From positions 2,232,001-2,296,000 of the forward strand of contig NZ_CP132381.1 of assembly GCF_030758615.1 (NCBI RefSeq): DNA of 64,000 nucleotides. The letters are read 5' to 3'. This document shows positions 10,146-37,157 of this stretch, one piece after another. The DNA is from Gilliamella apis (GTDB taxonomy: Bacteria > Pseudomonadota > Gammaproteobacteria > Enterobacterales > Orbaceae). How positions within the stretch are numbered: position 1 is the stretch's first letter; each line of letters starts with the position of its first letter. The position numbers and the translations under genes are program-made. Below the pieces are notes generated by a model. That model made no database searches. It was not told the DNA's origin and worked only from the letters and a program-made list of their open reading frames with translations.

Positions 10146-10147
10146 TA

Positions 10148-12121: not shown

Positions 12122-12125
12122 ACAA

Positions 12126-13795: not shown

Positions 13796-13854
13796 ACTAA
13801 TTTAATTATCCATCCAATTACGCTTTAAAGTTATCCTATCTACCTATTCTGATA

Positions 13855-15669: not shown

Positions 15670-17283
<1,614 letters not shown>

Positions 17284-17300
17284 TTAATTTGAGATGTCAA

Positions 17301-19001
17301 TTAAACAAAAGCAACAACTAATGGTCCCAATAATGTTAGGAAAACATTAGCTAAAGCATAGGTAATAGCAAAAGAATTGGTAGGCGTTGAGTTACCAGCT
17401 TTATTAAGTACTTCACCAAAAGCAGGATTCGCACTACGAGAGCCAGCTAAAGCGCCAGCAAATACCGCTGAATTTTTATAACCTAGTACATACTTGCCAA
17501 AATAAATGCCAAGTAACATCGGCAATAAAGTCACTACAACACCAATTAAGAATAATGAAAGACCTTGATCTTTAATCGTATTAATGGCTTGTAAACCTGA
17601 GCTAAGACCAACCACTGCTACAAAGCCAGCTAAGCCAAAATCTTTAAGTAGTTGCACAGCTCCGGTTGGAATATTTCCAACAGTTTGATGCAAGGAGCGA
17701 TACCAACCAAACAATAATCCTGATAATAATGCACCACCACCTGCACCTAAAGTGATTGGAATATCACTGACTCTAATCACAATAAGACCAATTATAAGTC
17801 CAACAACAAGACCTAAACCATGGAATATCCAATCAGTTTTTTCACTTTTGGTAATCGGCGCACCAATTCTATCTACTACACGTCTTAAGTCACCATCAGT
17901 ACCATAAATAGTAATGACATCACCTAACTTAAATACCATATCATTATTTAATGGCAATGGTTGTCCATCACGATGAACAGCAATTAAATAAATACCATGC
18001 TTTAACTTCATCACTTCGTCAGATGAAAGCACTTGCGTTAAATTTTGACCGACATATCGAGTATTACGCATTTCAACATCTTGAGTATTCATCACCACAT
18101 CCATACCTTGTGCTGAATTCACTTCTTCACCCAATAAATCAGCTGCAGCAATCATGGCATCCCGATGACCAACAACTAAAATAATATCTTTGGCTTTTAA
18201 TAAGGTTTCAGGTGCAGCTTCAATAATACGATTGCCACGTTTGATTCGTTCAATACTAATACCATTAATAACCTTTTCTAAACTTTCAACGGTTTGATTA
18301 ACCTTATTAGTAATTCGGTATAAGCGACCAGTTACATCAGACAAAGCAAAATTCTGGCCATTACCTAATAAAAGCGAACCATGTAATTGTTCTGCTTCGG
18401 CCTGAATTGCATCATCATTAATTTCACGCCCCATAATTTTCGGCAAAATATTTACACAGACAATAATAGCGCCAAGTGAACCGAAGATATAAGTCACAGC
18501 ATAACCAATGGTCACATTACCTTGTAATCTGCTTAACTCTTCTGGACTTAAACCTAGCTGAGTCAACGCGTCAGATGCTGTACCCATAATAGCTGATTGT
18601 GTTAATCCTCCTGCAGCTAAACCAGCAGCAAGGCCTTTATCTAAATTGAATAATTTGGCTAAAACTACTACCGTTACAAAACCAGCAACAGCAATAAATA
18701 ACGCTAAAAAGATTTCACGCAGAGTTTTAACTCCTAATGAACGGAAAAATTGTGGTCCACTTTCGAACCCGACAGCATAAATAAATAGGGCGAAAAGCAC
18801 AGCTTTAACGCCAGCATCGACAGTAACACCAAATACACTTAATGCCACTGCCACCAATAATGAACCAGCAACGCCACCTAATTGAAATTTACCGATTCGA
18901 ATTCCACCAATCAAATACCCTAAACTTAAAGAAAGAAATAAAAGTATTTCGGGTGAATGCTTAAGTCCATCTAAAATCCAATTTGAAAGCCATTGAAACA
19001 T
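17301..19001 (-). CDS. aspT: Aspartate:alanine antiporter
   Basis: A 566-residue inner-membrane exchanger of the AAE family: an N-terminal membrane block with five or so hydrophobic segments, two central cytoplasmic TrkA-C domains (about residues 200-370), and a C-terminal membrane block. The repeated GGLTQSAIMGTASDAL and GALAGSRSANPAFGEVL motifs are the paired signatures of the family. I start it at the ATG at 18999-19001 (MFQWLSNW), which has GAGGA at proper spacing; an upstream TTG in frame would add five residues. It exchanges external aspartate for the alanine produced by AspD. Transcribed first in the aspT-aspD operon. Confidence 0.93.
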   Translation of the reverse strand: MFQWLSNWILDGLKHSPEILLFLSLSLGYLIGGIRIGKFQLGGVAGSLLVAVALSVFGVTVDAGVKAVLFALFIYAVGFESGPQFFRSLGVKTLREIFLALFIAVAGFVTVVVLAKLFNLDKGLAAGLAAGGLTQSAIMGTASDALTQLGLSPEELSRLQGNVTIGYAVTYIFGSLGAIIVCVNILPKIMGREINDDAIQAEAEQLHGSLLLGNGQNFALSDVTGRLYRITNKVNQTVESLEKVINGISIERIKRGNRIIEAAPETLLKAKDIILVVGHRDAMIAAADLLGEEVNSAQGMDVVMNTQDVEMRNTRYVGQNLTQVLSSDEVMKLKHGIYLIAVHRDGQPLPLNNDMVFKLGDVITIYGTDGDLRRVVDRIGAPITKSEKTDWIFHGLGLVVGLIIGLIVIRVSDIPITLGAGGGALLSGLLFGWYRSLHQTVGNIPTGAVQLLKDFGLAGFVAVVGLSSGLQAINTIKDQGLSLFLIGVVVTLLPMLLGIYFGKYVLGYKNSAVFAGALAGSRSANPAFGEVLNKAGNSTPTNSFAITYALANVFLTLLGPLVVAFV

Positions 19002-19072
19002 AATAATTGTCCTCAAGTGCTAAGATTTATGAAATAGAAAAAGATAGAAAAGAAAAGATTGGAACTTGAATA

Positions 19073-19096: not shown

Positions 19097-19186
19097 GGAT
19101 ATATTTTAAACTTCAATACCAAGAATAGATAGTTAATTTTAACGATTAATATTATTGTCAGTAATGAAGTAAGGCGTGATAATTGA

Positions 19187-19852
19187 TTACTGCCAAAATT
19201 GATCAAGTTGTAAAGGAATAACTTGCACATTGCCAACTATTGGATATAAAGAAGCCAAAGACAACCGATATTCATTGGCAAAGCTTTGACTATAAACGAA
19301 CCAGCTTGTGTGGTTAATTTCAACGATCTCATCATTACAAAAAGGGAATGGTAACTCAAACGAAGATGGTGAAAGATAAAACCCCTGCCCTTGAGCTTTC
19401 ATAATTGCTTCTTTTAATGTCCATAATTGAAAGAAATCAAAATGTGGATTATTAAGTGCAATTTGATACTCATTTTCAGTCATAACATTCTGATAATCAA
19501 TAATGTTAATTGGCGTAATATATTCAATATCAATGCCAACTTCGCCATTAGTACTATATACACAAGCAACCCAATTATGAGCATGTGAAATATTGAAATG
19601 TCCTTGCATTGAATGAATAAATGGTTTTCGATAAGGACCGTAATCAATGACGGGTAAACAGGATTGTTCAAATTTTTCATGACGATGCAAAGAATAAAGC
19701 AACAGCAGTTTGCCAACTAAATTGCGACATTTATCTCGATCAAATCTAAATTTCTCGATATCTAACTGTGCAGAGTGGCTAAGTATTTTTTTTTGATCTT
19801 TTAAAACAGACCACGACAGATTATTGATATTCGCTAAATAAATAAAGTTCAT
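19187..19852 (-). CDS. Sfp-type 4'-phosphopantetheinyl transferase
   Basis: A 221-residue enzyme of the Sfp/Gsp family. Motifs: GPYRKPFI, GHFNISHAHNWVACVY, GEVGIDIEYI (magnesium-binding D and E) and LWTLKEAIMKAQGQGF (W..KEA.. K). It attaches the phosphopantetheine of coenzyme A to carrier serines, converting the apo-synthetase to its active form. It lies 63 bases downstream of the giant synthetase gene in the same direction, separated by a hairpin, so it is almost certainly the activating enzyme for the four carrier domains there. It belongs to a different branch from the EntD-type pseudogene at the left end of the window. Confidence 0.93.
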   Translation of the reverse strand: MNFIYLANINNLSWSVLKDQKKILSHSAQLDIEKFRFDRDKCRNLVGKLLLLYSLHRHEKFEQSCLPVIDYGPYRKPFIHSMQGHFNISHAHNWVACVYSTNGEVGIDIEYITPINIIDYQNVMTENEYQIALNNPHFDFFQLWTLKEAIMKAQGQGFYLSPSSFELPFPFCNDEIVEINHTSWFVYSQSFANEYRLSLASLYPIVGNVQVIPLQLDQFWQ

Positions 19853-19870
19853 TATCTTTACCTAAAAAGC

Positions 19871-19901
19871 ATCCCCTTAAAATAAGATTTTTTAAGGGGA
19901 T
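19871..19901 (-). terminator. Hairpin between the synthetase and PPTase genes
   Basis: ATCCCCTTAAAA pairs with TTTTAAGGGGAT around a short loop; on the minus strand it is followed by GCTTTTTAGG. It could be a weak or partial terminator that lowers PPTase expression relative to the synthetase. Confidence 0.55.
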
Positions 19902-19915
19902 AATTAACATTAAGG

Positions 19916-22900
19916 TTATAAAATCTGAGCTAAGATCTCTTGTTCATGAGATAAAATTGTGTAGTGACCACAATCTAACTTAACCAATTTTAATTGAGAA
20001 TTATCTTCTAAATAAGTATCAATATTATTTAATACATATTTTTCAGCTATATCTCCACCTTGTTCAATCTGTGTAGCTTTAAACAACACTACTTGAGTCT
20101 GTTTCAATTGAGCAGATAATGGCTGTACAACGAGCTTGTTATCAATTTTTGCAAAATTCTCAATTTCACCGCGTACATGTGCAGGTATATTTAATCGATC
20201 CATAGCACGAGTAATGTTAACTGGATGCTTATATTGATCTAAATCCCGCTCTTTTAATAGCCAAGAATCCAATAGATAAACTTCAATATTTTCGATTCCT
20301 TGCTGTTCAAGTAGTACTGCGATTTGTAACGCAATGTTGCCACCTAAAGACCAACCAAATAATTTTATTGGCAGATCTTTTGTTGCAACTTTACTGATAT
20401 GATCCAGATAATATTGCGCTAATACATTGAGATCCTCGATAGGTTTGTCATGATATAAATTGTAAGAATCTACACCAAAACAGCTGTATTTTGAGGATAA
20501 CTTATTCGCTAATGATTGATAAACATCACAACCGCTTAATCCTGGGTGGATCATGAAAATTTGTGGTTTTTCATGATTTGTTCTTAATTCCACAATAGGA
20601 TTAAACTGCTGTTGAGTCGTTGAGATTTTTTTCGCTAACTCCCGAATTGTATTAACGCTTAAAATATCAACTAAACGCATTTTAACTTTAAATGCATCAT
20701 TAATTCGGTTATTAAGCATCATAGCTAAGATACTATTACCACCTAATCGGAAGAAACTATCTTGCATACTAATTTCTTCAGCAGGAATTTTAAGGATATT
20801 AGCAACGACTTCACATAATGTTCTTTCAGCATCATTTTCTGGCGCAACATACTCAACCTTATCGGTAAGCTCTGGTTTTGGTAGCGCTCGACGATTTAAC
20901 TTACCATTTGAGGTAATTGGTAATTCAGTTAAATATATAAATGCTGACGGAATCATATATCCTGGTAAAGTTTCACTTAAATGAGCTTGTAATAATTGGC
21001 TATCAATCTCCTCATTAGCAAGATAATAAGCAACCAAATACTTGCTGCCCGAAGCCTGTTCATAAGCGATAACGATACTATGTTTGATTCCATTAAATTG
21101 GGTTAATCGAGCTTCAATTTCACCAAGTTCTATTCTGAATCCACGAATTTTAACTTGGAAGTCATTACGACCTAAATACTCAATATTACCATCAGCTAAA
21201 GAACGAACAAGATCGCCAGTTTTATAAATTCTACCATTGTAATCTTGCTCTTTTTCTACTTCCGTTTGGAACGGATTAGCAATAAAACGTTCATTCGATA
21301 ATGGAATGTTATTTAGATAACCTCTAGCAACATTATCACCACCGACATACAACTCACCTATTCCGCCAATAGGTACTGGTTGTAATAATTCATTAAGAAC
21401 ATAAGCTGAAGTATTAGCAACAGGTTTACCAATTAATACTTGTGAAATATTCGGATTATTACAATCATAATAAAGTACATCAATGGTTGCTTCTGTTGGT
21501 CCATAAAGATTGTGTATCTCACAGTTTGGCATCAACACTTGACATTTTTTCACTTCATAAAGGTTAAGTGCTTCACCACTACAGAACAGATATTTTAATC
21601 CCTGAACTTTTGGAACCAAATTAGGTTGTGCTTCTAATGTTTCCACAAATGCAACTAACATAGATGGCACAAAATGTAATACGGTGATTTGTTCAGCTTC
21701 AATCAACTCTGCAAGATAGACATTATCTTTATAAAGTTCTGAATGAGCAAAGACAATACAAGCACCATACCAATTCGCCCAAAATAGCTCCCACACCGAG
21801 ACATCAAAGGTATAATTCGTTTTTTGTAAAATATGATCCTTTTCAGTAATCGGATATTCGTTATTCATCCAAATAATACGGTTAACCGCGCCTTGATGCT
21901 CTAACATTACACCTTTTGGCATACCGGTCGTACCACTGGTATAAATCACATAAGCTAAGTTTTTAGGCTGAGCTAATGGTGTTGGGTTAGTTGTTGGATA
22001 TTTACTTAAGCAATCAATAGTTTGTGAGGATTGCAAGTTCAATGCAACTTGATCCTTAGAAACTAACGAATTGATTTTTTCATAACTTAAGTTAGTAGTT
22101 AATACAACCTTAGCTTTTGTATCTTCGATCATATAACTGAGACGATCTTCTGGCATATTAGGATCCATTGGTACATAAGCTCCTCCTGCCTTCAAGATAG
22201 CTAAAATACTTACTAACATGTATTTACAACGTTCAAGACAGATTGCCACCAAATCATCAGGCTGAATATCAAAGTTTTCACGCAAATAATGTGCTAGCTG
22301 ATTAGCTTGTTCATTAAGTTCTTGATAGGTCAAGCGATCATTTTCATAAACTAAAGCTAGATTATTTGGTGTTTTTAATACTTGTCTTTCAAACAATTGA
22401 TGCATTGTCACATCTGTTGGATAATCGCAACGCGTCTTATTCCAATCAAAGATCACTTTTTGATAAGTTGAGTTATCAATTAAACGTAAATCTGACAGAA
22501 CTTGTTGCTGTTGATACATCTTTGTAAATTGCTGCAAGATTGATTCATAAATAGTGATATAGTGTTCAATAGTCTGCGGCTTATAGAGTTTAGTCGCATA
22601 GTTGAATAAGCCAGTTATCGCTGGTTTAGAATCATCAAGCATCACGGTCATATCAAACTTAGCAGCTTGATAACTTGCATTGTCATTATTATAACGCTGC
22701 AATAAATTACCCTCTTTCCCATCTTCACCAAATGACTGTACGCCAAACATTACTTGGAAAATAGGATGTCGCGAAGTATCTTTTTCAATAGATAACGCAT
22801 CCACTAAGCGCTCAAATGGTAGATCTTGATATTGTTGAGCTTGTGTAATTAATTCACTAGTCTGCAAAATGAACATTTTTAGACTGTCGCTTGGTTCAAT

Positions 22901-25900
22901 ACATTTTCTTAATGCTAATGTATTAACAAAGAAGCCAATGGTATTTTCTGTACCCTGATAATTTCTTCCTGCAATTGGTGAACCAATGACAATATCTTTT
23001 TGATTACTAAATGAACTAAGTAGTAAATAGAAACCACTGAGTAGTACAGAATAAACACTAACATTGAGTTCTTTTGCCAATGAACGTATTTGTTGGCTGA
23101 CATCATAATCAAGCTCAAACATAACATTTTGACCTGTATAATCAATTTGTTGTGGACGAACATAGTCAGTCGGCAAATTAAGCGGTTCAAAATCAGCTAG
23201 TTGATCTTGCCAGAACTGCAATTGCTGATTCAAAATATCACCTTGCAAATACTGCCGCTGCCATAAAGCAAAGTCTTTATATTGCACGTCGACAGGTGGT
23301 AAGTTAAGTGTTACCGTTTGATTACTATCACCTAAAGATAAAACCTCATAGTATTGATATAACTGTCTGAACTCATTAATGAACAGATCAATTGACCAAC
23401 CATCAAATGCAATATGGTGGATCACAATACTCATATAATACTCTTGAGCTAATTGATAGCGACAAATCGAAATCGGTAACTCATGAGATAACATTATTAC
23501 TTTGTATATATGATTATGAATCGCTTTATCTAATTCAGCTTGGCTATCACAATAATGATTTTCGATTACCAACGGTTGCTGTTGCAAACTTATCACTTGT
23601 TGGTAGGCAACACCATCTGCTGTATTTTTAATTAATGAACGCAATACTTCATGGCGCTGAACAATTTCGTGTAAAGCTTGCTCAACAAACGAGATATTAG
23701 TCTCTGGCAGAAGTTTAAATACTAGTGGTATATTGTATGCGTTGCTACCACCTTCATAACAATCGATGAACCATAAGCGTTCCTGCGCAAAGGATAATCT
23801 CTGTTCTTGTTCATTAGCCACCTTCTGTATGGTAATTGATTGACGTTTTTGATGATTACTGTCAATAAATTTCGCAATTTCCTGAATGGTACGATATGTA
23901 AAAATATCACCTACACGCACATCACGTTCAAAAGTCTTGGCTATTCTACTTGACAACTTAATAGCTAAAATACTGTTACCACCTAATCTGAAGAAGTCAT
24001 CGACTACACTAATTGAGTCAATATCCATATCTAATAATTCAGCTATATCAGCAACTAACTGTTGTTCAGTCACTGTACTAGGAGCAACATAACTTTCTTG
24101 CATAACAAAGTTAGGTTTTGGCAATGCTTTACGATCAATTTTACCATTCACATTAACAGGCATAACCGTTAGGTGTACAAAGGCTGCAGGAACCATATAT
24201 TCAGGTAATGTTTTTTCTAAATAGCTGGTTAATTCAGTCTGATCTATTGCTGTATCAGATACATAGTAAGCAGTAAGATATTTATTACCTTGATTATTAG
24301 TCAGCGCCACAACAAGTACCTGCTTAATTTGAGGATGACTGATTAATCGCGTTTCAATCTCACCTAATTCAATTCTGAAACCACGAATTTTAACCTGAAA
24401 ATCATTACGACCAATATATTCAATATGACCGTTTGGTAAATAACGAACCAGATCGCCCGTTTTATAGATTCGAGCATTATAATTTTGCGCTTTTTCCTCA
24501 CTGGTTTGGAATGGATTTGCAATAAATGTCTGATTTGTTAATTCAGGGTTATTTAGATAACCACGACCAACACCAGCACCACCAATATATAATTCACCAA
24601 TAACACCAGGAGGCACAGGACGTAAATATTCATCAAGAACATATAAAGTTACGTTTTTAATGGCTGTTCCCAAATCTGTATTTAAGTCATCTTTATTATA
24701 ACGATGAGCCATAGCCCAAACAGTCGTTTCACTTGGTCCATAAACATTAATTAACTTGATACCCTGCTGGCAGTAAAGATTAACTAATTTAGCATTAACA
24801 GCTTCACCACCCACTGTCAATACAGGAACAGAAAGTAGTTCATCTTGATCAAGTAAAGCTGGTGGGATAAAGGCAAAATCAATATGTTGATCTTGGGTAT
24901 ATTTTGATAATGCTATAAAGTCTAAACGTTTATCCTCTGACAGAATGTGCAACTGATGACCATTAAGTAAGGCGTTATATATTTCGAAAGCATGTGCATC
25001 AAAAATATAATTTGAATACCACAGAACATTTTTTTGTTCTTGTTCATGATGACATGGCTGTAGATCTAAAATGTCTTGCTGAACTGTTGCTAAATTAGCT
25101 ATTCCATGGTGTTCGATCATTACCCCTTTTGGTAGTCCGGTGGTACCACTCGTATAAATTACATACGCCAAATGATGGGCTTGTGTTGATGTAACCAGAT
25201 TGTGCTTATCAAACTGTGAAAGTTTGTTAGCCATTGATGGATCATCAACAGCAATAACTTCTGGTTGCAATTCCGTTTTTAATTGAATTAATTCTTTAGC
25301 ATAATGAGCGTGAGTTAACACTCCTTTCGCTTTAGTATCATTAAGAATTAACTCTACTCGTTCTGCTGGCGTACTTGGACTAATCGGCACATAAGCCGCT
25401 CCTGCTTTCAGCACAGCTAAAATACTTACTATCATATATTGCGATTTATCTAAATATAACGCAATTAAATCATCAGGTTGAATTGATAATTGAGATCGTA
25501 AATAATTTGCCAGTTGATTCGCTTGTTCATTCAAACTTTGATAGGTTAATGTTATCCCTTCATAAACAACTGCAATAGAGTCAGGTGTTTTCTGAACTTG
25601 CTCTTCAAACAATCGGCTCGCCAGTTTATGATTTTCAAATGGAACGATATTTTTTTGTTGGTTAACGATTAATTGGTCATACTCTTGCTCAGTTAATAAG
25701 TTAAGCTTAGATGCCTCTATAGCTGGATTTTTAGCTAAATGTGTTAAGGTTAATTCTATTCCTTTCAATACACGTTCTATAGCTGTGTCATTAAAGAGTT
25801 CTCCAGCATATTTGATTTTAATCGATAACTTACCTGCACTCTCGAAGATCACAATTCCGAGAGGATAATCAAGTTTTTCATGACCACCTTGAAACACAAT

Positions 25901-28900
25901 TTTTAATTCATCTTGTTCGCTTTCTGATAATGGATAATTTTCAAATACGAATAATGAGTTAAATAAACGTGTACCAGATTTTTGTAATTCAATCAGATTC
26001 ATATTACTGTTATTATTCACATTATTAATATGTGATTGTAACATTTTGATAGTTTCAATGACGCTACCATCAGTATGCTCTAAAATTACAGGTAATGTAT
26101 TAATATAAAGTCCGATAGAGTTTTCTATACCGTCAATCGGTAAATTACGACCTGATAATGTCATACCAACAACGGTAGTGTTGCTATTACCAAAAATGCT
26201 TAATTGTTGATGCCAGCAATATTGAACCAAAGCATTTAATGTAAACTCATTGTTTTTACATAAAGATTTTAATTCTTCACATTGTTGGGAACCAATCTCT
26301 ATCGAAATTTCTTGTGGATCTTCAACATATTTATGGTCAGATAAATTAATATGCCCTAAATCCGCTTTAAGTAAGCTCTCTAGATTTTCAGGTTCAAGTT
26401 CAACATTAAGGTATTGTTTCCAGAATGATGCCGTCTCATTGGTTTTACTTTGTAAGTAAGATTGTGCAGCTAAATAGCTACTATCTTCTTGGATAATAAC
26501 CTCTTTTTGATGTAATAAAGATAAATAATTTTGATGTACATCATTAAGTAAGATAGGTAAACTCCAACCATCTAAAATAGCATGATGATTATTAAATAAA
26601 CATCGATAATACTCATCAGAACATTTAACTAAAGTCACTCTAAATAGTTGGCCTTTCATTAAATCATAACCGATTTGTTCATCTTGTTTAATCAATTGAT
26701 TGATACTGACTTGTTGTTGCTCTTGAGTTTGATTGCTAAGATCAACAAATTGCCACGCAAAATCAGATTGTTTATCAATAATCTGTACCAGCTCTTCCAC
26801 CCATGAGAAACGTAATCGTAATGATGGGAATTTTTGCTGTGTAAGATGCCATGCTTGTTTAAGCAAATTGATATCTAGTGAATTGTGATAATCCCAAATC
26901 ATCTGAATTCGATAAGCATTATCCGAATCTCCCTGCGAAACAGCATGATAGATAAACCCTTGCTGTAAACTATTTGCAGGATAAATTGCCTCTATTTCTT
27001 TATCGCTTTGTAATGAATTAAGCAGTGTTGGAGAGATCACGTTATTAATATCAGATTGTGTCAAATAGCTTCGTTCAATCAGTACTAGTTGATTAATGAG
27101 CTCATTAAGCTGCTGAGTAAATGCCGTAACTAAAGCTTCACCATGTACATTATTGACGTATCCTGTAATAGCAAATTGTAATTGATCATCCAAAATACCG
27201 CCATTAACGGATAAAAAGTCAGTCATGCGATTATTTGGAGACATTTCTAAACCACTATCTTCATCGCTAAATCGCCATTTATTAGCTTTTTCAGTACTAT
27301 CAAATTGGCCTAAATAGTTAAAACTAATCGCTGGTAAAGCTTGTTTAATATACCCCACCAAATAACCGTAACCTACACCATGGTTAGGTATTTGTCTTAA
27401 GGTATCTTTAATCATGGCAACATTATTAATAACATTCTGGTTATTTACCATTAGTTTAACTGGATACATACTGGTAAACCAACCAACCGTGTTATTAATA
27501 TCAATTTCACTGTAGAGATCTTCTCGTCCATGACCTTCTAATAAAATATAGTGATCATTACCACTGAATACCAATTTTAACGCTTGCGCGAGCGCTGTTA
27601 ATAAAATATCGTTAATTTCTGTGCCATATACCTTATTAACTTGGCTAAGTAAACGAGATGTTTGCGTCTTAGATAGCTGCATTTTAGCTTGATATAGCGT
27701 ATCAACACGATGTTGATCAAGGTGATTATGATACTGATTAATATCAGCCAATATAGTTTGCCAATAAGCAGATTCTTGCTCATTGGCAATTAGCGTTGAA
27801 TACTGCTGTTGTTTATTGACCCATTGACGATAACTACTACCTTTTTCACCAAGAATATCTTTAACATTGATATTGGCATCAACGGATGATTGTTGGCTTA
27901 AATATTGATAAATAGCTTCTAGGTCATCTTTAATGATACGCCAACTTACTACATCAATATTTAAATGATGTGCAGCGACATGAATACGAGCAGAATTATC
28001 ATCAAAACCAGTTAAATAACCAAAATGACATAACGCCCCTTGATTAAAGGTAAAATGGCTTTGCCAATCAGTCAATAATTGTTGAATCTTATCTTGTGAC
28101 CAACCAGATATATTTTGAGTAGAAAATGGCAACAGATCAGGCAATGATTGATATGTTGCGGCTGAATCATGATAATTAACCCGTAACATATCATGATATT
28201 CAAGCAATTTTTGGACACTTAGTTTGAGTAAATCAACGTTTAGCATTGGAACTTTAAGCAAAAAGGCTTGATTCCAATGGTGATAGTCTTGGAATCGGCC
28301 AACTTCAACTTCTTTAAAGAACCACTGTTGAATAGGTGAAAGTTCAAGAGTTCCAGTTAAAATTCCTTGTTCGGTTTCCACATTGGCTTTTGATTCATGG
28401 CGATTATTAATCACATGGTTACTTAAAGCTTCTACCGTTCTTAAATTAAAAATATCTTTAATAGATAGATAATAATTAAGAGCCTGTTTAATTCGGTTGG
28501 TAAGCTGGATACTGCTAATACTGTCCGCACCGAGTTTAAAGAAGTCATCATGAATACTGATTTCATTGGCTTGTAAACCAAGTATATTGGCAAAGGTTTG
28601 ACAAAAAATAGCTTCAGTTTCATTTGTTGGACCAACGTAGTTTTGCTCATCAAGAAGCTGTGGTGTTGGTAACGCTTTACGATCCAATTTACCATTCATG
28701 TTCATTGGCATAGCGTCAAGATAAACAAACGCAGCTGGGATCATATATTCAGGAAGAGACTTCTGTAAATAATCAATTAGTTGATCTTGAGTCAATGGTT
28801 GTTTAGCCACATAATAAGCTGCAATATATTTAGCTCCAGCACTATTTTTCAAAGCTAGTACAGCAGCTTGTTGAATATCTGGATGACTAATTAAACAAGC

Positions 28901-31900
28901 TTCAATTTCTGCAAGTTCAATTCTGAATCCACGAATTTTAACTTGGAAATCATTACGACCAATATAATCAACATTGCCGTCAGCTAAATAACGAACTAAA
29001 TCACCTGTTTTATAGATTCGCGCATTATAATTTTGTGCCTTTTCAACAACAGTCTGGAATGGGTTTTGAATAAATACTTTATCTGTCAGTTCTGGTTTAT
29101 GTAAATAACCACGACCAACACCTTCCCCGCCAATATAAAGTTCACCAATTGCCCCTTCAGGTACTGGACGAAGTTGTTCATCTAAAATATACAATGAAGT
29201 ATTTGTCAACGCTTTACCGATAGGAACACTGTAAATAAATGGTTCTTGAGCTAAATTAGTTAAATAAGTAACAGCAAATACAGTGGTTTCGGTTGGACCA
29301 TAACCATTAACCACTTTGACATGCGGATAAAGTTGATGGCATTTATTAATATGATGTGCCGATAAAGCTTCACCACCGACAAGTATGTAATTTAATAATT
29401 TTAAATTAGCAACTTCATTATCGATTAACGCATTGAAAAAGGTGGTTGTACAGAAGAAATTAGTAATTTTTTTATCAGCAATTAACTCATTAAACTGTTC
29501 TAAATCTAAAAATGTCTCTTTTTCAATAATAACTAACGGTACACCATTAAGTATAGGTGTGTAAAAATCATAAACAGAACCGTCAAATTGATAACCTGAG
29601 ATACTTAGTAAACGATCATCAGAATTGATTTTGACATAATTAGCATTAACAATATAGTTATTAAGATTTCTATGCTCTATGAGTGTTCCTTTTGGATTTC
29701 CCGTTGTTCCACTCGTATAGATAACATAAGCTAAATCATGCGGTTTCACTTTAATCAAAAGATTATCTTTCGCATAATGTTGTAGATTGTCAACAAAATC
29801 AGCTTGATCAACAGCTACTATGGATAAATTAGGGGCTAAACCAGTTAATTTATTACAATGATTTTCGGTTGTAAGAACTGCTTTAACTTGCGCATCTTGC
29901 ATTATGAATTCGTTACGTGTATCTGGCGCATTAGGATCCAATGGAACATAGGCGCCACCAGCCTTCAAAATAGCTAAGAAGCAGATCAAGATATATTGTG
30001 AACGATCGAGATAAAGACCAATCAAATCGTTAGGTTTTATATCAAAATGCTCTTTAAGGTAACGCGCTAGCTGATTGGATTGCTCATTAATTTGTTGATA
30101 AGTCAGTTCATTGTTTTGGAAAATGACTGCAATATTATCAGGTATTTGCTGAGCTTTTTCTTCAAACAATTCTGCAATAGACTTGTCCCTTGCATAATGT
30201 TGAAACGGTTTATTTTTATCAAAGACCAATCTATCGAAAGTAGCCGCATCAACTAACCGCATTTCAGTTAACGGTTGTTCTAACTGACACAGTTGAGCAA
30301 ACTGTTCTAAAATAGTTTGATAAATAGTGATGTAGTGCTCAATTGTTTCTTGGCGATAGAGTTTGCAAGCATAATTAAATAGACCAGTAATAGCTGATTT
30401 AGAGTCATCAAGCATTACCGTCATATCAAACTTAGCAGATTGATAATTAACAATTTCACTTTGATATAAACTTAATAGCTCTTCAATTTTACCATTATGT
30501 ATCGCTGACCCAAATGATTGTACACCAAACATTACTTGGAATATTGGATGCCGTGAAGAATCTTTTTCAATAGCTAATGCATCAACTAATCGTTCAAATG
30601 GCAAATCTTGATATTGTTGAGCTTGGGTGACTAACTCACTGGTTTGTAAAATGAATGATTTTAAACTGTCTTTCGGATCAATACATTTACGTAGTGCGAT
30701 AGTATTAACAAAAAAGCCTATAGTATTTTCAATACCTGAATAATTTCTACCCGCAATTGGAGAACCAACAACTACATCTTTCTGATTGCTAAAAGTACCT
30801 AATAATAGATAGAAACCACTCAACAATACCGAATAGACACTCACATTAAGTTCATTAGCTAATGAACGGATTTGTTGACTTATTTGTTCATTAAGTTCAA
30901 AAGGAATATCATGACCAGTGTAATCAATCTCACGTGGACGAGGGTAATCAGTAGGCAGATTAAGTTGTTCAAAATCTTCTAACTGTCTTTTCCAGAAATT
31001 TAATTGATTATTTAAAAAATCACCTTTTAAAAGATCACGTTGCCATAAAGCGAAATCTTTATATTGAACTTCGACTGCCGGTAAGCGTAATGTTTCAGCG
31101 TATTGGTTATCTCCTTGAGATAAAGCCGTAACATAATGATAAAGATTAACTAACTCGTCTAAAAAGACATCTGTTGACCAACCATCAAATGCAATATGAT
31201 GAATGACAATGCTTAAATAACTTTCACCAGCAAATTGATAACAGCAAACATAAATCGGTAATTCTTCGGATAAATTAAATATTCTATGCAGATCCTCATA
31301 AATTGTCGCTTCAAGTTCTGCTTTGTTTGAACAGTTTTGTTTATTAATCTTCCATGGGAATTTTTGTAAATCAATAACTTGCTGATAGCCAATACCTTGT
31401 GCATTCGTTTTAATTAAAGAACGTAAAACTTCGTGTCGTTCGATAATTGCGTATATTGCTTTTTCAAGTAGATTAATATCTGTCGTGCTTGTTAGTTTAA
31501 ATGCCAATGGAACATTGTAAGCATTACTACCACCTTCATAAGAATCGATAAACCATAGACGTTCTTGCGCAAAAGATAATAATTGTTGCTCAATATGTTC
31601 AACAGGTATGACATTAATTATCTGTCTTTTTTCTTGGTTCTTATCAATGAATTGAGCTATTTTTTGTGTGGTACGTAAAGTAAAAATATCAGCCACTCGA
31701 ATAGAACGATCAAATTCTCGAGTCAACTTACTTGATAATTTGATAGCTAAAATACTATTACCACCTAAACGGAAGAAGTCATCTGTGATACTGATAGCAC
31801 TCTCTTCAAATCCTAATAAACTGGCGATTGCCTCTACAATTGAATGCTCAGTGGTTGAGCTAGGTGCAAGATAGCTAGTTTGGGTCATTAAGGTTGGTTT

Positions 31901-34798
31901 TGGTAATGCTCTTTGATCAGTTTTACCATTAATCGTCATAGGCATAGCGAGTAAATGAACAAATGCTGAAGGAACCATATATTCAGGTAACACATTGTTT
32001 AAATACGCTACTAATTCTTCTGTATCAAGTTCATTATCAGCGACATAATATGCTGCTAAATATTTATAACCACCTTGATTATTTAGTGCTAATACCGTGG
32101 CTTGTTTGATCTGTGGATGCATCATTAAATGCGTTTCGATCTCACCAAGCTCTATACGGAAACCACGGATTTTTACTTGGAAGTCATTACGACCGATATA
32201 TTCAATATTACCATCAGGCAACAAACGGACTAAATCACCTGTTTTATAAATACGATCATTATAGTTTTGTTTTCGTTCATCTTCAGTTTGAAATGGATTT
32301 TTAATGAATACTTTATTAGTCATCTCAACATTGTTCAGATAACCACGACCGACTCCTGCACCGCCAATATAAAGCTCACCAATACAGCCAACAGGTAATG
32401 GGCGACGTTGTGGATTTAAAACATATAAAGAGGTATTTGGTAAGGCTACACCAATAGGAACATTGTTAACGAATGATGTTTGACATTGATTAGTTAGATA
32501 AGTTGTAGCAAGACAAGTCGTTTCTGTTGGGCCATAAGCATTCAATAGGTTAACATTTGGGTATAACTTAAGGCATTTATTTACGTGAACCGCTGATAAA
32601 GCTTCTCCTGCTGCTAGAATATAGCGTAATTTTGCTATATTAGGTAACTGAGCATCAACTAACGTGTTGAAAAATGTTGATATAGCTAGGATATTGGTAA
32701 TATCATATTGCTCAATTAACTGATTAAATTTATCTAAATCTAAGAGATTTTCTTTAGCGGTAATAACGACGCCAGCACCATTGAGTAAAGCCATGAATAT
32801 TTCATAAATTGATGCATCAAAATGATATCCTGCAATACATAATATGCGATCTGACTCATCAACTTCGACGTAATTAGCATCAACGACTAAACGATTAACA
32901 CAGTGTTGCTCAATTAATGTTCCTTTCGGATTTCCCGTTGTTCCGCTAGTATAAATAACATAAGCTAAATCATTAGGTTTAGTTTCGATAACAGTATTAT
33001 CTGTTGAATAATTTTGTAAGGTTGCAATAAAAGATGGATCATCAACCGGAACACTTGCAACAGTTGGCATTAACTCATTCAGTTTATCAACATAATGAGA
33101 TTGTGTAATAACTGCACGAATATTGGCATCCTCTAAAATATATTTATTACGTTCAGGAGGTGCAGTTGGATCGATCGGAACATAGGCGGCTCCAGATTTA
33201 AGTACTGCTATAATAGCAACAATAATTTGTTCAGTACGATCTAAATAAAGGCCCACTAAATCATTTGGTTTGATAGAAAAGTGATCTTGAAGGTAGTGAG
33301 CAAATTGATTGGCTTTGTTGTTTAATTCAGAGTAGGACATCTCAATTTGTTCAAATAACACAGCGGTATTGTTTGGTGTTTTTTGACATTGCTCTTCAAA
33401 TAATTGAGCAATTATTTTATCCCTTTTATAAGGTTGTTGAGTTTGATTTATATCATGAATTAAAACTTTTAATTCATCTTCATCCAGTACCTCAATATCA
33501 TTTACTAAAATATCGGCTTGATCATTACTTAAATAGTTAAGTAATTTTATAAACAATCTCTGATAGAACATCACAAGTTGTTCAACCAGTTGTTTATCAA
33601 ATTGCTGTTCACTAAATTTAACGCGATAGTTAATTTGGTTGTTATGTTCTTCTTGCTCAAACACCAATTTATTAGATAAATCTATTTGAAATTCATGATT
33701 AACAGCTTCATCAATCATCCCATTCAGATTCATTTTATGATCTCGAACAAAGGTTTGCACAAACGCCACATCTAGAATATTAGCATTCTCAGCAAATTGC
33801 ATAATATCGTAAACTGGTAAGTATCTAGCGCCAGTTTGTTTAACCTTTTTATAATGAAGCAAAATATTTTGTATAACAGATTCTAAAGTTGAATTTTCTT
33901 CAAAATGGTAAACAACCGGTAATGTATTAATATGAGCGCCGTAGATTAATTCTTTACCTTCATTAAAAGCAATTGGATAAACAAGAGGAATTGCGCTTTG
34001 AGACGTCATTTTGTTTAATAACAACGCCGCTACTAATTGACCGAATAAGTAAGGTGTTATCTTATATTTACGTCGTATTGCTTTAACTTGATTATAAATG
34101 TTTTCATCATAGCTAAAAGTAAATTCACTAATATGAGGTTTAAATTGATTTAATTGCTTTGGTTTTTCGGTTGCTAACTTTAAGAAAGTAAAGTCGATAT
34201 TTTTTACATCTTGTAACTCTTCTTTCCAGAAATCTTCCATCTGCTGTTTTTGCGTTGTTAAAATTTCATGATACGAATCATTAAGTTTTTCATGCAATTG
34301 AGCTTGTGCTTCATATGACGGTAGCTCATAAGGTATATCGTTATAATATTGACTTAGTTTATCCCAAAACTCTTGTGTACTTACTCCATCAACTAAAATA
34401 TGATGAAATACTAAAATAATTCGATATTGTTGATGGTCAACTCGAATAACATGAAGTCTCGCAGAAATATCCTTTTCTAAATCAAAGGGTTCCGAAACTA
34501 TTTTACTGATATCTTCGTTAGTTAAGGGCTGATCGTGATAAACTAATAATGTTTTTAATTTATCTTCTGTGATTGACTCTCTTTTTTGCCAGAAAATACC
34601 ATCTTCCTGATTTACAATGAAACTCCTGAAAACAAAATGTTCATTAACCACATTCTTAAAACTTTCAAAAAGTTTTTTTCGATTGAGTTCTCCAGAGATT
34701 ATATTATCACATACAATGTTGTAATCACTTCTTGATGGGTTTGCTAACCATTCATAATAAAAAATTGATTGATAGGGAGTAAGTCTTATTTTCTTCAT
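19916..34798 (-). CDS. Four-module non-ribosomal peptide synthetase with thioesterase
   Basis: A 4960-residue synthetase read without interruption. Module 1: condensation (FHHILVDG, His132-His133), adenylation (FDASIYE, Asp661), carrier (Ser1015). Module 2: condensation (HHIAFDGWS, 1200), adenylation (Asp1739), carrier with the epimerase-type LGADSI (Ser2093), epimerase (HHLNIDVVSW 2277, EGHGRE, NYLGQF). Module 3: condensation (HHAILDGWS, 2738; expected D-to-L type), adenylation (Asp3267), carrier (Ser3609). Module 4: condensation (3794), adenylation (Asp4332), carrier (Ser4689), thioesterase (GWSLGG, Ser4817; LLDSW; final GHYTIL). Specificity residues of module 4, D-V-W-H-F-S-L-I-D-K, are the serine code. 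I read modules 1-3 as DAYLLAACLK, DGYFLGGVFK and DAFFTGVVWK; none is a code I can assign (module 2 is loosely like isoleucine). A condensation domain at the very N-terminus suggests an acyl starter. Product: a probably acylated tetrapeptide, D at position 2, Ser at 4, released or cyclised by the thioesterase. No MbtH partner, hydroxylase or catechol gene is nearby. Confidence 0.96.
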   Translation of the reverse strand: MKKIRLTPYQSIFYYEWLANPSRSDYNIVCDNIISGELNRKKLFESFKNVVNEHFVFRSFIVNQEDGIFWQKRESITEDKLKTLLVYHDQPLTNEDISKIVSEPFDLEKDISARLHVIRVDHQQYRIILVFHHILVDGVSTQEFWDKLSQYYNDIPYELPSYEAQAQLHEKLNDSYHEILTTQKQQMEDFWKEELQDVKNIDFTFLKLATEKPKQLNQFKPHISEFTFSYDENIYNQVKAIRRKYKITPYLFGQLVAALLLNKMTSQSAIPLVYPIAFNEGKELIYGAHINTLPVVYHFEENSTLESVIQNILLHYKKVKQTGARYLPVYDIMQFAENANILDVAFVQTFVRDHKMNLNGMIDEAVNHEFQIDLSNKLVFEQEEHNNQINYRVKFSEQQFDKQLVEQLVMFYQRLFIKLLNYLSNDQADILVNDIEVLDEDELKVLIHDINQTQQPYKRDKIIAQLFEEQCQKTPNNTAVLFEQIEMSYSELNNKANQFAHYLQDHFSIKPNDLVGLYLDRTEQIIVAIIAVLKSGAAYVPIDPTAPPERNKYILEDANIRAVITQSHYVDKLNELMPTVASVPVDDPSFIATLQNYSTDNTVIETKPNDLAYVIYTSGTTGNPKGTLIEQHCVNRLVVDANYVEVDESDRILCIAGYHFDASIYEIFMALLNGAGVVITAKENLLDLDKFNQLIEQYDITNILAISTFFNTLVDAQLPNIAKLRYILAAGEALSAVHVNKCLKLYPNVNLLNAYGPTETTCLATTYLTNQCQTSFVNNVPIGVALPNTSLYVLNPQRRPLPVGCIGELYIGGAGVGRGYLNNVEMTNKVFIKNPFQTEDERKQNYNDRIYKTGDLVRLLPDGNIEYIGRNDFQVKIRGFRIELGEIETHLMMHPQIKQATVLALNNQGGYKYLAAYYVADNELDTEELVAYLNNVLPEYMVPSAFVHLLAMPMTINGKTDQRALPKPTLMTQTSYLAPSSTTEHSIVEAIASLLGFEESAISITDDFFRLGGNSILAIKLSSKLTREFDRSIRVADIFTLRTTQKIAQFIDKNQEKRQIINVIPVEHIEQQLLSFAQERLWFIDSYEGGSNAYNVPLAFKLTSTTDINLLEKAIYAIIERHEVLRSLIKTNAQGIGYQQVIDLQKFPWKINKQNCSNKAELEATIYEDLHRIFNLSEELPIYVCCYQFAGESYLSIVIHHIAFDGWSTDVFLDELVNLYHYVTALSQGDNQYAETLRLPAVEVQYKDFALWQRDLLKGDFLNNQLNFWKRQLEDFEQLNLPTDYPRPREIDYTGHDIPFELNEQISQQIRSLANELNVSVYSVLLSGFYLLLGTFSNQKDVVVGSPIAGRNYSGIENTIGFFVNTIALRKCIDPKDSLKSFILQTSELVTQAQQYQDLPFERLVDALAIEKDSSRHPIFQVMFGVQSFGSAIHNGKIEELLSLYQSEIVNYQSAKFDMTVMLDDSKSAITGLFNYACKLYRQETIEHYITIYQTILEQFAQLCQLEQPLTEMRLVDAATFDRLVFDKNKPFQHYARDKSIAELFEEKAQQIPDNIAVIFQNNELTYQQINEQSNQLARYLKEHFDIKPNDLIGLYLDRSQYILICFLAILKAGGAYVPLDPNAPDTRNEFIMQDAQVKAVLTTENHCNKLTGLAPNLSIVAVDQADFVDNLQHYAKDNLLIKVKPHDLAYVIYTSGTTGNPKGTLIEHRNLNNYIVNANYVKINSDDRLLSISGYQFDGSVYDFYTPILNGVPLVIIEKETFLDLEQFNELIADKKITNFFCTTTFFNALIDNEVANLKLLNYILVGGEALSAHHINKCHQLYPHVKVVNGYGPTETTVFAVTYLTNLAQEPFIYSVPIGKALTNTSLYILDEQLRPVPEGAIGELYIGGEGVGRGYLHKPELTDKVFIQNPFQTVVEKAQNYNARIYKTGDLVRYLADGNVDYIGRNDFQVKIRGFRIELAEIEACLISHPDIQQAAVLALKNSAGAKYIAAYYVAKQPLTQDQLIDYLQKSLPEYMIPAAFVYLDAMPMNMNGKLDRKALPTPQLLDEQNYVGPTNETEAIFCQTFANILGLQANEISIHDDFFKLGADSISSIQLTNRIKQALNYYLSIKDIFNLRTVEALSNHVINNRHESKANVETEQGILTGTLELSPIQQWFFKEVEVGRFQDYHHWNQAFLLKVPMLNVDLLKLSVQKLLEYHDMLRVNYHDSAATYQSLPDLLPFSTQNISGWSQDKIQQLLTDWQSHFTFNQGALCHFGYLTGFDDNSARIHVAAHHLNIDVVSWRIIKDDLEAIYQYLSQQSSVDANINVKDILGEKGSSYRQWVNKQQQYSTLIANEQESAYWQTILADINQYHNHLDQHRVDTLYQAKMQLSKTQTSRLLSQVNKVYGTEINDILLTALAQALKLVFSGNDHYILLEGHGREDLYSEIDINNTVGWFTSMYPVKLMVNNQNVINNVAMIKDTLRQIPNHGVGYGYLVGYIKQALPAISFNYLGQFDSTEKANKWRFSDEDSGLEMSPNNRMTDFLSVNGGILDDQLQFAITGYVNNVHGEALVTAFTQQLNELINQLVLIERSYLTQSDINNVISPTLLNSLQSDKEIEAIYPANSLQQGFIYHAVSQGDSDNAYRIQMIWDYHNSLDINLLKQAWHLTQQKFPSLRLRFSWVEELVQIIDKQSDFAWQFVDLSNQTQEQQQVSINQLIKQDEQIGYDLMKGQLFRVTLVKCSDEYYRCLFNNHHAILDGWSLPILLNDVHQNYLSLLHQKEVIIQEDSSYLAAQSYLQSKTNETASFWKQYLNVELEPENLESLLKADLGHINLSDHKYVEDPQEISIEIGSQQCEELKSLCKNNEFTLNALVQYCWHQQLSIFGNSNTTVVGMTLSGRNLPIDGIENSIGLYINTLPVILEHTDGSVIETIKMLQSHINNVNNNSNMNLIELQKSGTRLFNSLFVFENYPLSESEQDELKIVFQGGHEKLDYPLGIVIFESAGKLSIKIKYAGELFNDTAIERVLKGIELTLTHLAKNPAIEASKLNLLTEQEYDQLIVNQQKNIVPFENHKLASRLFEEQVQKTPDSIAVVYEGITLTYQSLNEQANQLANYLRSQLSIQPDDLIALYLDKSQYMIVSILAVLKAGAAYVPISPSTPAERVELILNDTKAKGVLTHAHYAKELIQLKTELQPEVIAVDDPSMANKLSQFDKHNLVTSTQAHHLAYVIYTSGTTGLPKGVMIEHHGIANLATVQQDILDLQPCHHEQEQKNVLWYSNYIFDAHAFEIYNALLNGHQLHILSEDKRLDFIALSKYTQDQHIDFAFIPPALLDQDELLSVPVLTVGGEAVNAKLVNLYCQQGIKLINVYGPSETTVWAMAHRYNKDDLNTDLGTAIKNVTLYVLDEYLRPVPPGVIGELYIGGAGVGRGYLNNPELTNQTFIANPFQTSEEKAQNYNARIYKTGDLVRYLPNGHIEYIGRNDFQVKIRGFRIELGEIETRLISHPQIKQVLVVALTNNQGNKYLTAYYVSDTAIDQTELTSYLEKTLPEYMVPAAFVHLTVMPVNVNGKIDRKALPKPNFVMQESYVAPSTVTEQQLVADIAELLDMDIDSISVVDDFFRLGGNSILAIKLSSRIAKTFERDVRVGDIFTYRTIQEIAKFIDSNHQKRQSITIQKVANEQEQRLSFAQERLWFIDCYEGGSNAYNIPLVFKLLPETNISFVEQALHEIVQRHEVLRSLIKNTADGVAYQQVISLQQQPLVIENHYCDSQAELDKAIHNHIYKVIMLSHELPISICRYQLAQEYYMSIVIHHIAFDGWSIDLFINEFRQLYQYYEVLSLGDSNQTVTLNLPPVDVQYKDFALWQRQYLQGDILNQQLQFWQDQLADFEPLNLPTDYVRPQQIDYTGQNVMFELDYDVSQQIRSLAKELNVSVYSVLLSGFYLLLSSFSNQKDIVIGSPIAGRNYQGTENTIGFFVNTLALRKCIEPSDSLKMFILQTSELITQAQQYQDLPFERLVDALSIEKDTSRHPIFQVMFGVQSFGEDGKEGNLLQRYNNDNASYQAAKFDMTVMLDDSKPAITGLFNYATKLYKPQTIEHYITIYESILQQFTKMYQQQQVLSDLRLIDNSTYQKVIFDWNKTRCDYPTDVTMHQLFERQVLKTPNNLALVYENDRLTYQELNEQANQLAHYLRENFDIQPDDLVAICLERCKYMLVSILAILKAGGAYVPMDPNMPEDRLSYMIEDTKAKVVLTTNLSYEKINSLVSKDQVALNLQSSQTIDCLSKYPTTNPTPLAQPKNLAYVIYTSGTTGMPKGVMLEHQGAVNRIIWMNNEYPITEKDHILQKTNYTFDVSVWELFWANWYGACIVFAHSELYKDNVYLAELIEAEQITVLHFVPSMLVAFVETLEAQPNLVPKVQGLKYLFCSGEALNLYEVKKCQVLMPNCEIHNLYGPTEATIDVLYYDCNNPNISQVLIGKPVANTSAYVLNELLQPVPIGGIGELYVGGDNVARGYLNNIPLSNERFIANPFQTEVEKEQDYNGRIYKTGDLVRSLADGNIEYLGRNDFQVKIRGFRIELGEIEARLTQFNGIKHSIVIAYEQASGSKYLVAYYLANEEIDSQLLQAHLSETLPGYMIPSAFIYLTELPITSNGKLNRRALPKPELTDKVEYVAPENDAERTLCEVVANILKIPAEEISMQDSFFRLGGNSILAMMLNNRINDAFKVKMRLVDILSVNTIRELAKKISTTQQQFNPIVELRTNHEKPQIFMIHPGLSGCDVYQSLANKLSSKYSCFGVDSYNLYHDKPIEDLNVLAQYYLDHISKVATKDLPIKLFGWSLGGNIALQIAVLLEQQGIENIEVYLLDSWLLKERDLDQYKHPVNITRAMDRLNIPAHVRGEIENFAKIDNKLVVQPLSAQLKQTQVVLFKATQIEQGGDIAEKYVLNNIDTYLEDNSQLKLVKLDCGHYTILSHEQEILAQIL

Positions 34799-35797
34799 CT
34801 TTCTTGCCTATAAAAATAGTATTTGTTTTATAAAATTACAATCATTTCGTACTACTCCTTTTTTGGGCTACTACACAAGTTTTCGATTCCTTTATGAAAA
34901 CCTAATAACTAACGTTGATAAATTAGAAATATTTTTTAATTTATATACTATATATATTATCTGTTTGTGTAAACGGTTTCAATCAAACTATGTTAATATT
35001 GTGATTTTAATTATGTTTTTTACATCAATTTTATAAAAGTCAATTTTTTTAGCGAGTTGTTAAAATGGATTTTCTTTGGCAAAAAGAAATATTTCACAAA
35101 AAACAAATATTTAATATAATTTAAAAATATTAACAAAACTTTATATTTTTATGCTAAAGTTTTTATTAGATGGAAAACAGTGAGTTTGCTGTATTTTTAA
35201 TCAACTAATGAAAGTGATAACGGCTTTATTCATCAGTTAGAAAACGCCAAACAAAACTCTTTTATGTGTATTGAGTATCATGGTGATGGGTTAATTATGT
35301 TTTTCTCTTCAATATAAGCAATAATATTATTTATAAGCTATATTGGGGACAAATTAATTAAATCAGCTTGATTTTTAGGCTTATGACCTACCAAAAAGTC
35401 CAATAATAATAATGATTAGACTAGAGGATGAGAATACAACCTTTCTTGCGAGCGGCTTATATCAATAATAAAGATTATAATACAACATTAAACATGGTCA
35501 TTACGAAGCGTTCAACAATTCAATTTTTTATTTCATATTTAGTAAAACTATTTCAAAAAACAATTTCATTATTTCCCTTTTATTTTGTTACATCCCATTT
35601 ATCTTACCATTTTGTTATTATCTATCATGTTCTAATTCACAGTTAATCACATTATATTGTCAAAAACAGTGAATAATAAAATTTAATATCAATAATAAAT
35701 TAAATATAAAAAGGCCCAAATAATGTTTGAAAAAGTGATAATGAGATTTGGGGGTTAAAAAACCCCTCTCCTCAATTTTTTTTAACTTATTAACAGA
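34799..35797. other. Long AT-rich region upstream of the synthetase gene
   Basis: About 1 kb with no convincing gene. It must hold the synthetase promoter. A GalR-like sequence lies at 34967-34982. Around 35199-35320 a frame without a start (ends EYHGDGLIMFFSSI) may be gene debris. A 72-codon frame at 35428-35646 has random-looking composition. GGGG/CCCC hairpin at 35750-35766. No Fur-box-like sequence of good quality is visible. Confidence 0.5.
34967..34982. promoter_or_regulatory. GalR/LacI-family operator-like sequence
   Basis: GTGTAAACGGTTTCAA resembles the E. coli gal external operator (GTGTAAACGATTCCAC) and matches TGTAANCGNTTACA at all but one defined position. It lies about 170 bases before the synthetase start. 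One imperfect match in AT-rich DNA is weak evidence. Confidence 0.3.
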
Positions 35798-37130: not shown

Positions 37131-37157
37131 ACAAGGTCCTTTCAATACTTTTAAAGA

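What the first reader, a model, noticed from the sequence alone, without database searches (positions are those of the whole stretch)
19187..34798. Uncharacterised tetrapeptide synthetase with its own activating enzyme
One uninterrupted 4960-residue protein has the order C-A-T / C-A-T-E / C-A-T / C-A-T-TE. All domains keep their catalytic residues, so the system looks live. The last adenylation domain carries the serine code; the other three codes match nothing I know with confidence. An N-terminal condensation domain suggests an acyl cap. The predicted product is acyl-X1-D-X2-X3-Ser, possibly a lactone. I recall no described product for such a locus in this bacterial group.
Basis: partly seen in the sequence, partly recalled or inferred. 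Interest (0 to 1): 0.78.

Follow-up and report, generated by a model that had tools for sequence, protein, structure and literature searches.

The report
Peptide synthetase between phage-like ends
A gut bacterium of a family that lives largely in insects carries a two-gene unit for an unknown serine-ended small peptide, and the unit appears to have come from a related species and sits inside the footprint of a Mu-type jumping phage.

Summary
It holds every condensation-type domain found in the genome. A4 carries a serine code; A1 and A2 look aliphatic; A3 is unassigned. Acyl cap and release mode are not shown.

The unit was acquired horizontally: NRPS dS to two related species is 0.24, against 1.05-1.84 for five other genes. 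It lies in a 16,475-bp insertion (19165-35639) with the hallmarks of the family's Mu-like phages: TG...CA ends, a 120-bp right end 83-92% identical to theirs, a short similar left end, and a 5/6-bp target duplication (6/6 in the two prophages with both ends located). The sister species has an aryl-polyene cluster between purD and aspT instead. No phage gene remains inside.

So: a new NRPS of ordinary architecture in an unusual mobile setting. Product, activity and order of events remain unproven.

The parts
19916..34798 (-). NRPS, 4960 aa, C-A-T / C-A-T-E / C-A-T / C-A-T-TE
31619..34798 (-). module 1: C1-A1-T1, code DAYLLAACLK (aliphatic, inferred)
   Evidence: C1 clade
26999..31618 (-). module 2: C2-A2-T2-E, code DGYFLGGVFK (aliphatic, inferred), epimerised to D (inferred)
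23849..26998 (-). module 3: C3-A3-T3, code DAFFTGVVWK, substrate not assigned
19919..23848 (-). module 4: C4-A4-T4-TE, code DVWHFSLIDK (serine)
   Evidence: same code as a bacillomycin synthetase domain, one residue from EntF
19187..19852 (-). PPTase, 221 aa (PF01648), 63 bp downstream of the NRPS stop
   Evidence: linked in 5 of 6 copies
19179..35214 (-). cassette shared with G015 (92.6% DNA), G003 (93.2%) and, from 19186, G031 (88.2%): PPTase, NRPS and about 415 bp upstream
35521..35639 (-). right end of Mu-like prophages, starting TGAATTAGAACATG
35215..35520 (-). unassigned DNA inside the insertion; part of it (to 35327) matches a solo phage end in G023 at 75%
19165..19186 (+). left terminus TGAAGTAAGGCGTGATAATTGA; resembles left ends of the G031 (15 of 22) and G026 prophages
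19159..19164 (+). target-site duplication copy CAGTAA
35640..35645 (+). target-site duplication copy CAGTTA (5 of 6)
17301..19016 (-). aspT, host gene flanking the insertion (not part of the unit)
35841..37145 (-). purD, host gene flanking the insertion (not part of the unit)

Best explanation
A two-gene biosynthetic unit. Inferred steps: the PPTase arms the four carrier domains; the NRPS joins hydrophobic residue 1, a hydrophobic residue 2 that E turns to D, an unassigned residue 3 and serine; C1 most likely attaches an acyl group to residue 1; TE frees the product as an acid or, by using an internal hydroxyl, a lactone. Shown: the unit was acquired horizontally from a lineage near G003/G015 and now lies in an insertion of 16,475 bp upstream of aspT whose borders bear the right end, TG...CA termini and target duplication typical of the family's Mu-like transposable phages. 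Inferred: phage-type transposition made this insertion, either with the NRPS already between the phage ends or as a prophage whose interior was later exchanged for the NRPS.
For: Domains and motifs intact. Codes read with a method that returns the expected codes for EntF and the bacillomycin synthetases (expected values recalled). NRPS+PPTase adjacent in 5 of 6 family copies while the neighbours differ from the window's. NRPS dS 0.244 (G015) and 0.241 (G003) against 1.05-1.84 for purD, purH, lepA, lepB, rseB; PPTase dS 0.360 and 0.195; between G015 and G003 NRPS and the five genes agree (0.173 against 0.155-0.357). NRPS dN/dS 0.12 for these two pairs. In sister G017 the two flanks of the insertion (up to 19164, and 35640-35729) are contiguous. 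The right end matches prophages carrying Mor, transposase and transposition protein and 6 IMG/VR contigs. The two prophages with both ends located have TG...CA and perfect 6-bp duplications; the insertion has TG...CA and 5 of 6.
Against: No phage gene lies inside the insertion and only about 20 bp of left end remain, so it may not be movable now. The left-end match is short: 57 of 3796 plus-strand TG sites of the window, itself included, score as well. A stricter first test, the 14-base terminus with up to 3 mismatches, did not find the left ends of the G031, G026 and G003 prophages. For G003 no left end was found later either. In the possible donors the unit is not between phage ends. The duplication is 5 of 6. 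The TE has the highest dN/dS of the protein (0.37 and 0.31 against G015 and G003). Acyl cap, residue 3 and release mode rest on inference; there are no expression or product data here.
Confidence: 0.65

Rival explanations
1. It makes a siderophore, with the TonB receptor, FhuBCD and RhtX/FptX-type transporter downstream (7958-15069) as its uptake system.
For: Those genes lie 4-11 kb from the PPTase and resemble hydroxamate-siderophore types; the last module resembles EntF (below its NCBIfam cut-off) and has a serine code.
Against: None of the 5 other NRPS copies has these genes beside it in the 40 kb read; sister G017 has the iron genes at 95-98% identity and no match to the NRPS E-C3 query. 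The own genome has only two marginal hits for the hydroxylase family (24.5 and 21.6 bits, cut-off 21.3). No Fur-like site upstream of the NRPS (13 of 19, shuffle P 0.34), while the MFS gene of the iron operon has one (16 of 19, P 0.007). The cassette holds no gene besides NRPS and PPTase (ORFs of 120 aa or more).
Confidence: 0.07
2. The NRPS arrived by ordinary homologous or illegitimate recombination and the phage end is a leftover of an older prophage at the same spot.
For: Solo phage ends without phage genes exist elsewhere: 3 of the 15 ends read. The left end is short and about 300 bp next to the right end are of unknown origin.
Against: Both outer borders coincide with a near-perfect target duplication and with TG...CA termini, and the left terminus resembles phage left ends; a leftover right end predicts this at one border only, unless the prophage's left terminus also survived.
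Confidence: 0.3
3. A silent, decaying relic with no product.
For: No expression data; patchy distribution (6 of 44 family genomes hold the four-module form).
Against: No stop and no lost motif in any of the 6 four-module copies; NRPS dN/dS 0.10-0.15 against own.
Confidence: 0.1

Closest known systems
Five-module NRPS of the Orbus-group genus (G037 = Orbus hercynius DSM 22228, G039, G040)
   Same: First C domain in the same clade, E-C3 region 44-45% identical, serine-type code at the end, PPTase next to it in 2 of 3
   Different: About 6000 aa, five modules, E in module 1, first code DASTIAAVCK or DASTVAAVCK (tyrosine-type, recalled)
Four-module NRPS of Orbus hercynius (L045), of G040, and of three further genomes of the window's genus
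   Same: Same domain order and nearly the same length; PPTase next to it in 4 of these 5 (not G040)
   Different: Different chromosomal place; A1 and A2 codes differ
Chitinophaga sp. CF118 NRPS (L067)
   Same: Closest first C domain outside the family; E-C3 48% identical in its best segment
   Different: Different codes and at least two E domains
EntF (enterobactin) module
   Same: Serine code DVWHFSLVDK, C-A-T-TE order (recalled)
   Different: One module; enterobactin genes surround it
Mu-like transposable prophages of the same genus (G031, G026)
   Same: TG...CA ends, right end 91-92% identical, similar left terminus, 6-bp target duplication
   Different: 34-35 kb with phage genes; the NRPS insertion has none

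Membership tests
Modular type I NRPS | C, A, T repeats with intact core motifs and a terminal TE | tested here: met
Modular type I NRPS | activates amino acids and releases a peptide | not testable with these tools
   needs assay or LC-MS
Siderophore cluster | conserved linkage with uptake genes | tested here: not met
   0 of 5 other copies
Siderophore cluster | chelating-group biosynthesis (hydroxylase family PF13434) in the genome | tested here: inconclusive
   two marginal hits (24.5 and 21.6 bits, cut-off 21.3) for a family that also hits 12 of 14 control genomes; catechol genes were not searched genome-wide
Siderophore cluster | Fur box upstream of the NRPS | tested here: not met
   13 of 19, P 0.34
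Aureusimine NRPS AusA (NF047350) | score over the NCBIfam cut-off | tested here: met
   2532.6 against 2500, with 5 stretches
Aureusimine NRPS AusA (NF047350) | two modules ending in a reductase domain (recalled) | tested here: not met
   four modules ending in TE; so not filed as AusA
Lipopeptide NRPS | starter-type first C domain | tested here: inconclusive
   separate clade of N-terminal C domains; the rhizomide starter C 7c1h is 50th of the 50 Foldseek rows shown, with C domains of other types above it
Mu-like transposable element | TG...CA termini and short target duplication | tested here: met
   TG...CA; duplication 5 of 6 bp
Mu-like transposable element | end sequences of the phage | tested here: met
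   right end 120 columns at 83-92% to ends with phage genes; left end only a short match, missed by a stricter test
Mu-like transposable element | transposase genes inside | tested here: not met
   only NRPS and PPTase among ORFs of 120 aa or more; so 'phage-end-bounded insertion', not a phage

The most novel reading that the evidence does not exclude
A Mu-like phage carried, or lent its ends to, a whole NRPS pathway, moving it between gut-symbiont species as cargo into an interval where the sister species keeps an aryl-polyene cluster, so that species differ in one chromosomal slot by which metabolite they make.
Probability: 0.35. Interest if true: 0.75.

Novelty: new variant of a known kind. 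Interest (0 to 1): 0.5.

Why it matters
Surveys list NRPS clusters as common and variable in bee-gut Gilliamella (PMC9598484, PMC10673953; passages read), with no route of spread and no product for them in the passages seen. If this reading holds, it gives one concrete route (phage-type transposition), a defined two-gene unit small enough to express whole, and sister species that differ in whether one interval holds an NRPS or an aryl-polyene cluster. Deletion of the aryl-polyene cluster has been made and tested for gut colonisation in the related Frischella (PMC10104596, passages read), so consequences are testable.

Tried and rejected
Siderophore reading from the neighbouring iron genes: judged unlikely on synteny, sister genome and Fur-site tests.

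AusA membership suggested by the NCBIfam score: rejected, wrong domain order.

Typing C1 as a lipid starter: sequence search against solved structures, a C-domain tree and a predicted structure (mean pLDDT 75.6) with Foldseek did not settle it. VIA-align was unavailable.

Direct replacement of the aryl-polyene cluster: weakened. G034 (86% complete, contig ending 35 bases into the aspT-side flank) shows purD, two small genes and the uninterrupted target site without that cluster at this place, so loss or absence of the aryl-polyene genes and the NRPS insertion may be separate events.

NRPS and aryl-polyene excluding each other: the MMPL gene of the cluster is in 17 of 44 genomes and in 0 of 7 carriers of the four- or five-module NRPS; Fisher P 0.032, or 0.067 for the 6 four-module carriers, not corrected for kinship; a lead only.

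A class of phage-end cargo elements: for the solo end in G004 some chance 6-base-plus-CA matches turned up but none with the left-end core motif searched; G024's gave none before its contig end; G023's runs towards a contig end. First genome-contig scan found nothing. No match in viral contigs proved to encode a relative of the E-C3 region.

Full report
What is there. The window is part of a 2,714,786-base single-contig genome. That the window's own genus is Gilliamella is my inference from the size of the genus and the group, not shown. The NRPS is on the minus strand, 19916-34798, 4960 aa; the PPTase is 19187-19852. Pfam and motif scans confirm C-A-T / C-A-T-E / C-A-T / C-A-T-TE with intact cores. 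All five condensation-type matches of the genome are in this protein.

Conservation. An 891-aa E-C3 piece (the tool takes at most 3000 aa) was searched in 44 family genomes: 10 matched. Six, own included, hold the four-module form: G000, G015, G003, G031, G037, G040; the five others are 94, 94, 90, 69 and 59% identical to own. Three hold a five-module form of about 6000 aa (G037, G039, G040). The PPTase lies next to the four-module NRPS in 5 of 6 and next to the five-module form in 2 of 3. No other gene of the window recurs beside these copies, apart from one ABC ATPase, 27% like FhuC, about 10 kb from the G037 copy; G015, G003 and G031 share some neighbours with each other.

Substrates. Codes were read by alignment, with EntF and the bacillomycin synthetases as controls; these gave the serine, threonine, asparagine, tyrosine, proline and glutamate codes I recall for them. 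Own codes: A1 DAYLLAACLK, A2 DGYFLGGVFK, A3 DAFFTGVVWK, A4 DVWHFSLIDK. A4 is serine. The Orbus hercynius copy reads DAYFLGGTFK and DAYFLGATFK at A1 and A2, near valine-type codes (recalled), so A1/A2 are read as aliphatic. A3 is the same in G000, G015, G003, G031 and G037, differs in G040, and stays unassigned. Between own and G015, A1 differs at 2 of 9 and A2 at 3 of 9 code positions, A3 and A4 at none. In the same pair dS is 0.44-0.47 over A1's first two thirds and 0.39-0.47 over A2's last two thirds, and 0.14-0.29 in the other 14 blocks measured; towards G003 the rise is smaller (A1 core 0.33, A2 core and end 0.39-0.43), and towards G031 there is no such contrast. Parts of A1 and A2 may therefore come from another source, which could change the product; this is suggestive only (5 of 18 code positions, P 0.004-0.03 by background). 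TE evolves fastest at the protein level (dN/dS 0.37, 0.31, 0.20 against G015, G003, G031).

First C domain. In a tree of 339 C-type domains (338 typed by their order in the protein, plus EntF; 52 C-terminal, cut or unclear ones dropped) C1 sits in a clade of 12 rows, all N-terminal, support 1.0; by the distance lists these are nine from the family's NRPSs, two repeats of the Orbus hercynius ones and one from Chitinophaga sp. CF118. Of C3's 22 nearest rows outside the family set, 15 are E-preceded and 7 are not. C1 is thus a special first domain; that it attaches an acyl group is inference.

Horizontal origin. For G000 against G015, G003 and G031, NRPS dS is 0.244, 0.241 and 0.488, PPTase dS 0.360, 0.195 and 0.564. 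For purD, purH, lepA, lepB and rseB it is 1.05-1.53, 1.07-1.84 and 1.22-1.43, values near saturation. Between G015 and G003 NRPS dS is 0.173 and the five genes 0.155-0.357; between G015 and G031 0.458 and 0.334-0.621. So the unit looks vertical among those three and horizontal into the window's lineage. NRPS dN/dS against own is 0.10-0.15 in the five comparisons (dS about 2 in the two most distant).

The insertion. Shared cassette DNA runs from 19179 to 35204-35214. Homology with the sister G017 (PurD 98%, AspT 99.5%) stops at 19164 on the aspT side and resumes at 35747 at purD. In addition 35640-35729 matches G017 13941-14030 at 81%, which in G017 lies directly against the aspT-side flank. 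Hence the insertion is 19165-35639. Its first 120 bp from the purD side are the right end of Mu-like prophages. Of 15 ends read, 12 have phage genes next to them and 3 are solo; the match begins at the terminal TG in 12 of 15. Ends in G031, G026 and G003 also adjoin phage genes. Such prophages carry Mor (PF08765), transposase and transposition protein (PHROGs; the G003 transposase lies in two frames). An exact degenerate 32-base pattern of this end is in 6 IMG/VR contigs of 37.0-39.4 kb; at least one of these looks like the same contig as G020's (same length and position), so they are not all independent. In the two prophages with both ends located, G031 (35,439 bp) and G026 (34,403 bp), the target duplications are TTTAAC and AATAGG, 6 of 6 each; in G003 no left end was found. 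The NRPS insertion has TG...CA and CAGTAA/CAGTTA, and its left terminus matches G031's at 15 of 22. A first, stricter search with its 14 terminal bases had missed these left ends.

The slot. In G017 and G006 the purD-aspT interval holds what Pfam on the G017 proteins shows to be an aryl-polyene cluster: ketosynthases, ApeP-like dehydratase, two carrier proteins, an AMP-binding enzyme, acyltransferase, glycosyltransferase and an MMPL-family protein; G022 and G016 have similar genes beyond purD. Its MMPL gene is in 17 of 44 genomes and not in the window's genome. In the other 25 of 30 purD loci read besides own and these four, the 1500 bases beyond purD match neither cluster. G034 shows the target site whole without that cluster.

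Siderophore reading. The transport genes at 7958-15069 resemble hydroxamate types, but G017 has them without the NRPS, the NRPS copies elsewhere lack them, and the Fur-like site is upstream of the transporter and not of the NRPS. Catechol biosynthesis was not searched genome-wide.

Literature. Passages of PMC9598484 and PMC10673953 report NRPS clusters among the commonest in Gilliamella, without a product for them in the passages seen. PMC12282196 passages list NRPS classes over Gilliamella, Orbus and Entomomonas together. PMC10104596 passages describe the aryl-polyene cluster of Frischella. PMC13331135 passages mention Mu-like phages only as a keyword class. Four searches around Mu-like phages or prophage cargo and NRPS clusters listed no paper whose title or abstract start describes such cargo (listings only, subscription journals mostly not covered).

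Verdict. The enzyme is a new member of an ordinary kind; its setting between Mu-like phage ends after transfer between species is the unusual part. Shown: architecture, conservation, horizontal origin, insertion borders, right end, near-perfect duplication. Inferred: product, acyl cap, release, and whether the NRPS travelled as cargo or replaced a prophage's interior.

Noticed in passing
window 7958-15069: Hydroxamate-type iron-uptake operon (TonB receptor, FhuB, FhuD, FhuC, RhtX/FptX-type MFS; most below the NCBIfam cut-offs) with a Fur-like site (16 of 19) upstream of the MFS gene; receptor found in G017 and G034 at 97-98%, in G039, G040, G042 at 53-57%.
   Followed up: partly
window 15670-19016: Aspartate 4-decarboxylase and aspartate-alanine antiporter pair next to the insertion.
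   Followed up: no
G000:C1:2065206-2065478: A further ACPS-family gene (142-aa frame); no frame of that length among the matches of G017, G006, G015, G003 or G031.
   Followed up: no
L030/L031, L032/L033, L034/L035: Five-module, about 6000-aa NRPS in three Orbus-group genomes, first code tyrosine-type, last code serine-type.
   Followed up: partly
L192 9620-11400: Transposase of the G003 Mu-like prophage lies in two frames, so that prophage may be defective.
   Followed up: no
window 2153-6893: An 1131-aa protein and a neighbouring 451-aa SWIM-type protein (label by eye) of unknown role, minus strand.
   Followed up: no
G023:C15:251-564: Solo Mu-like end that shares about 190 bp beyond the common end with the window's insertion, near a contig border.
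   Followed up: partly
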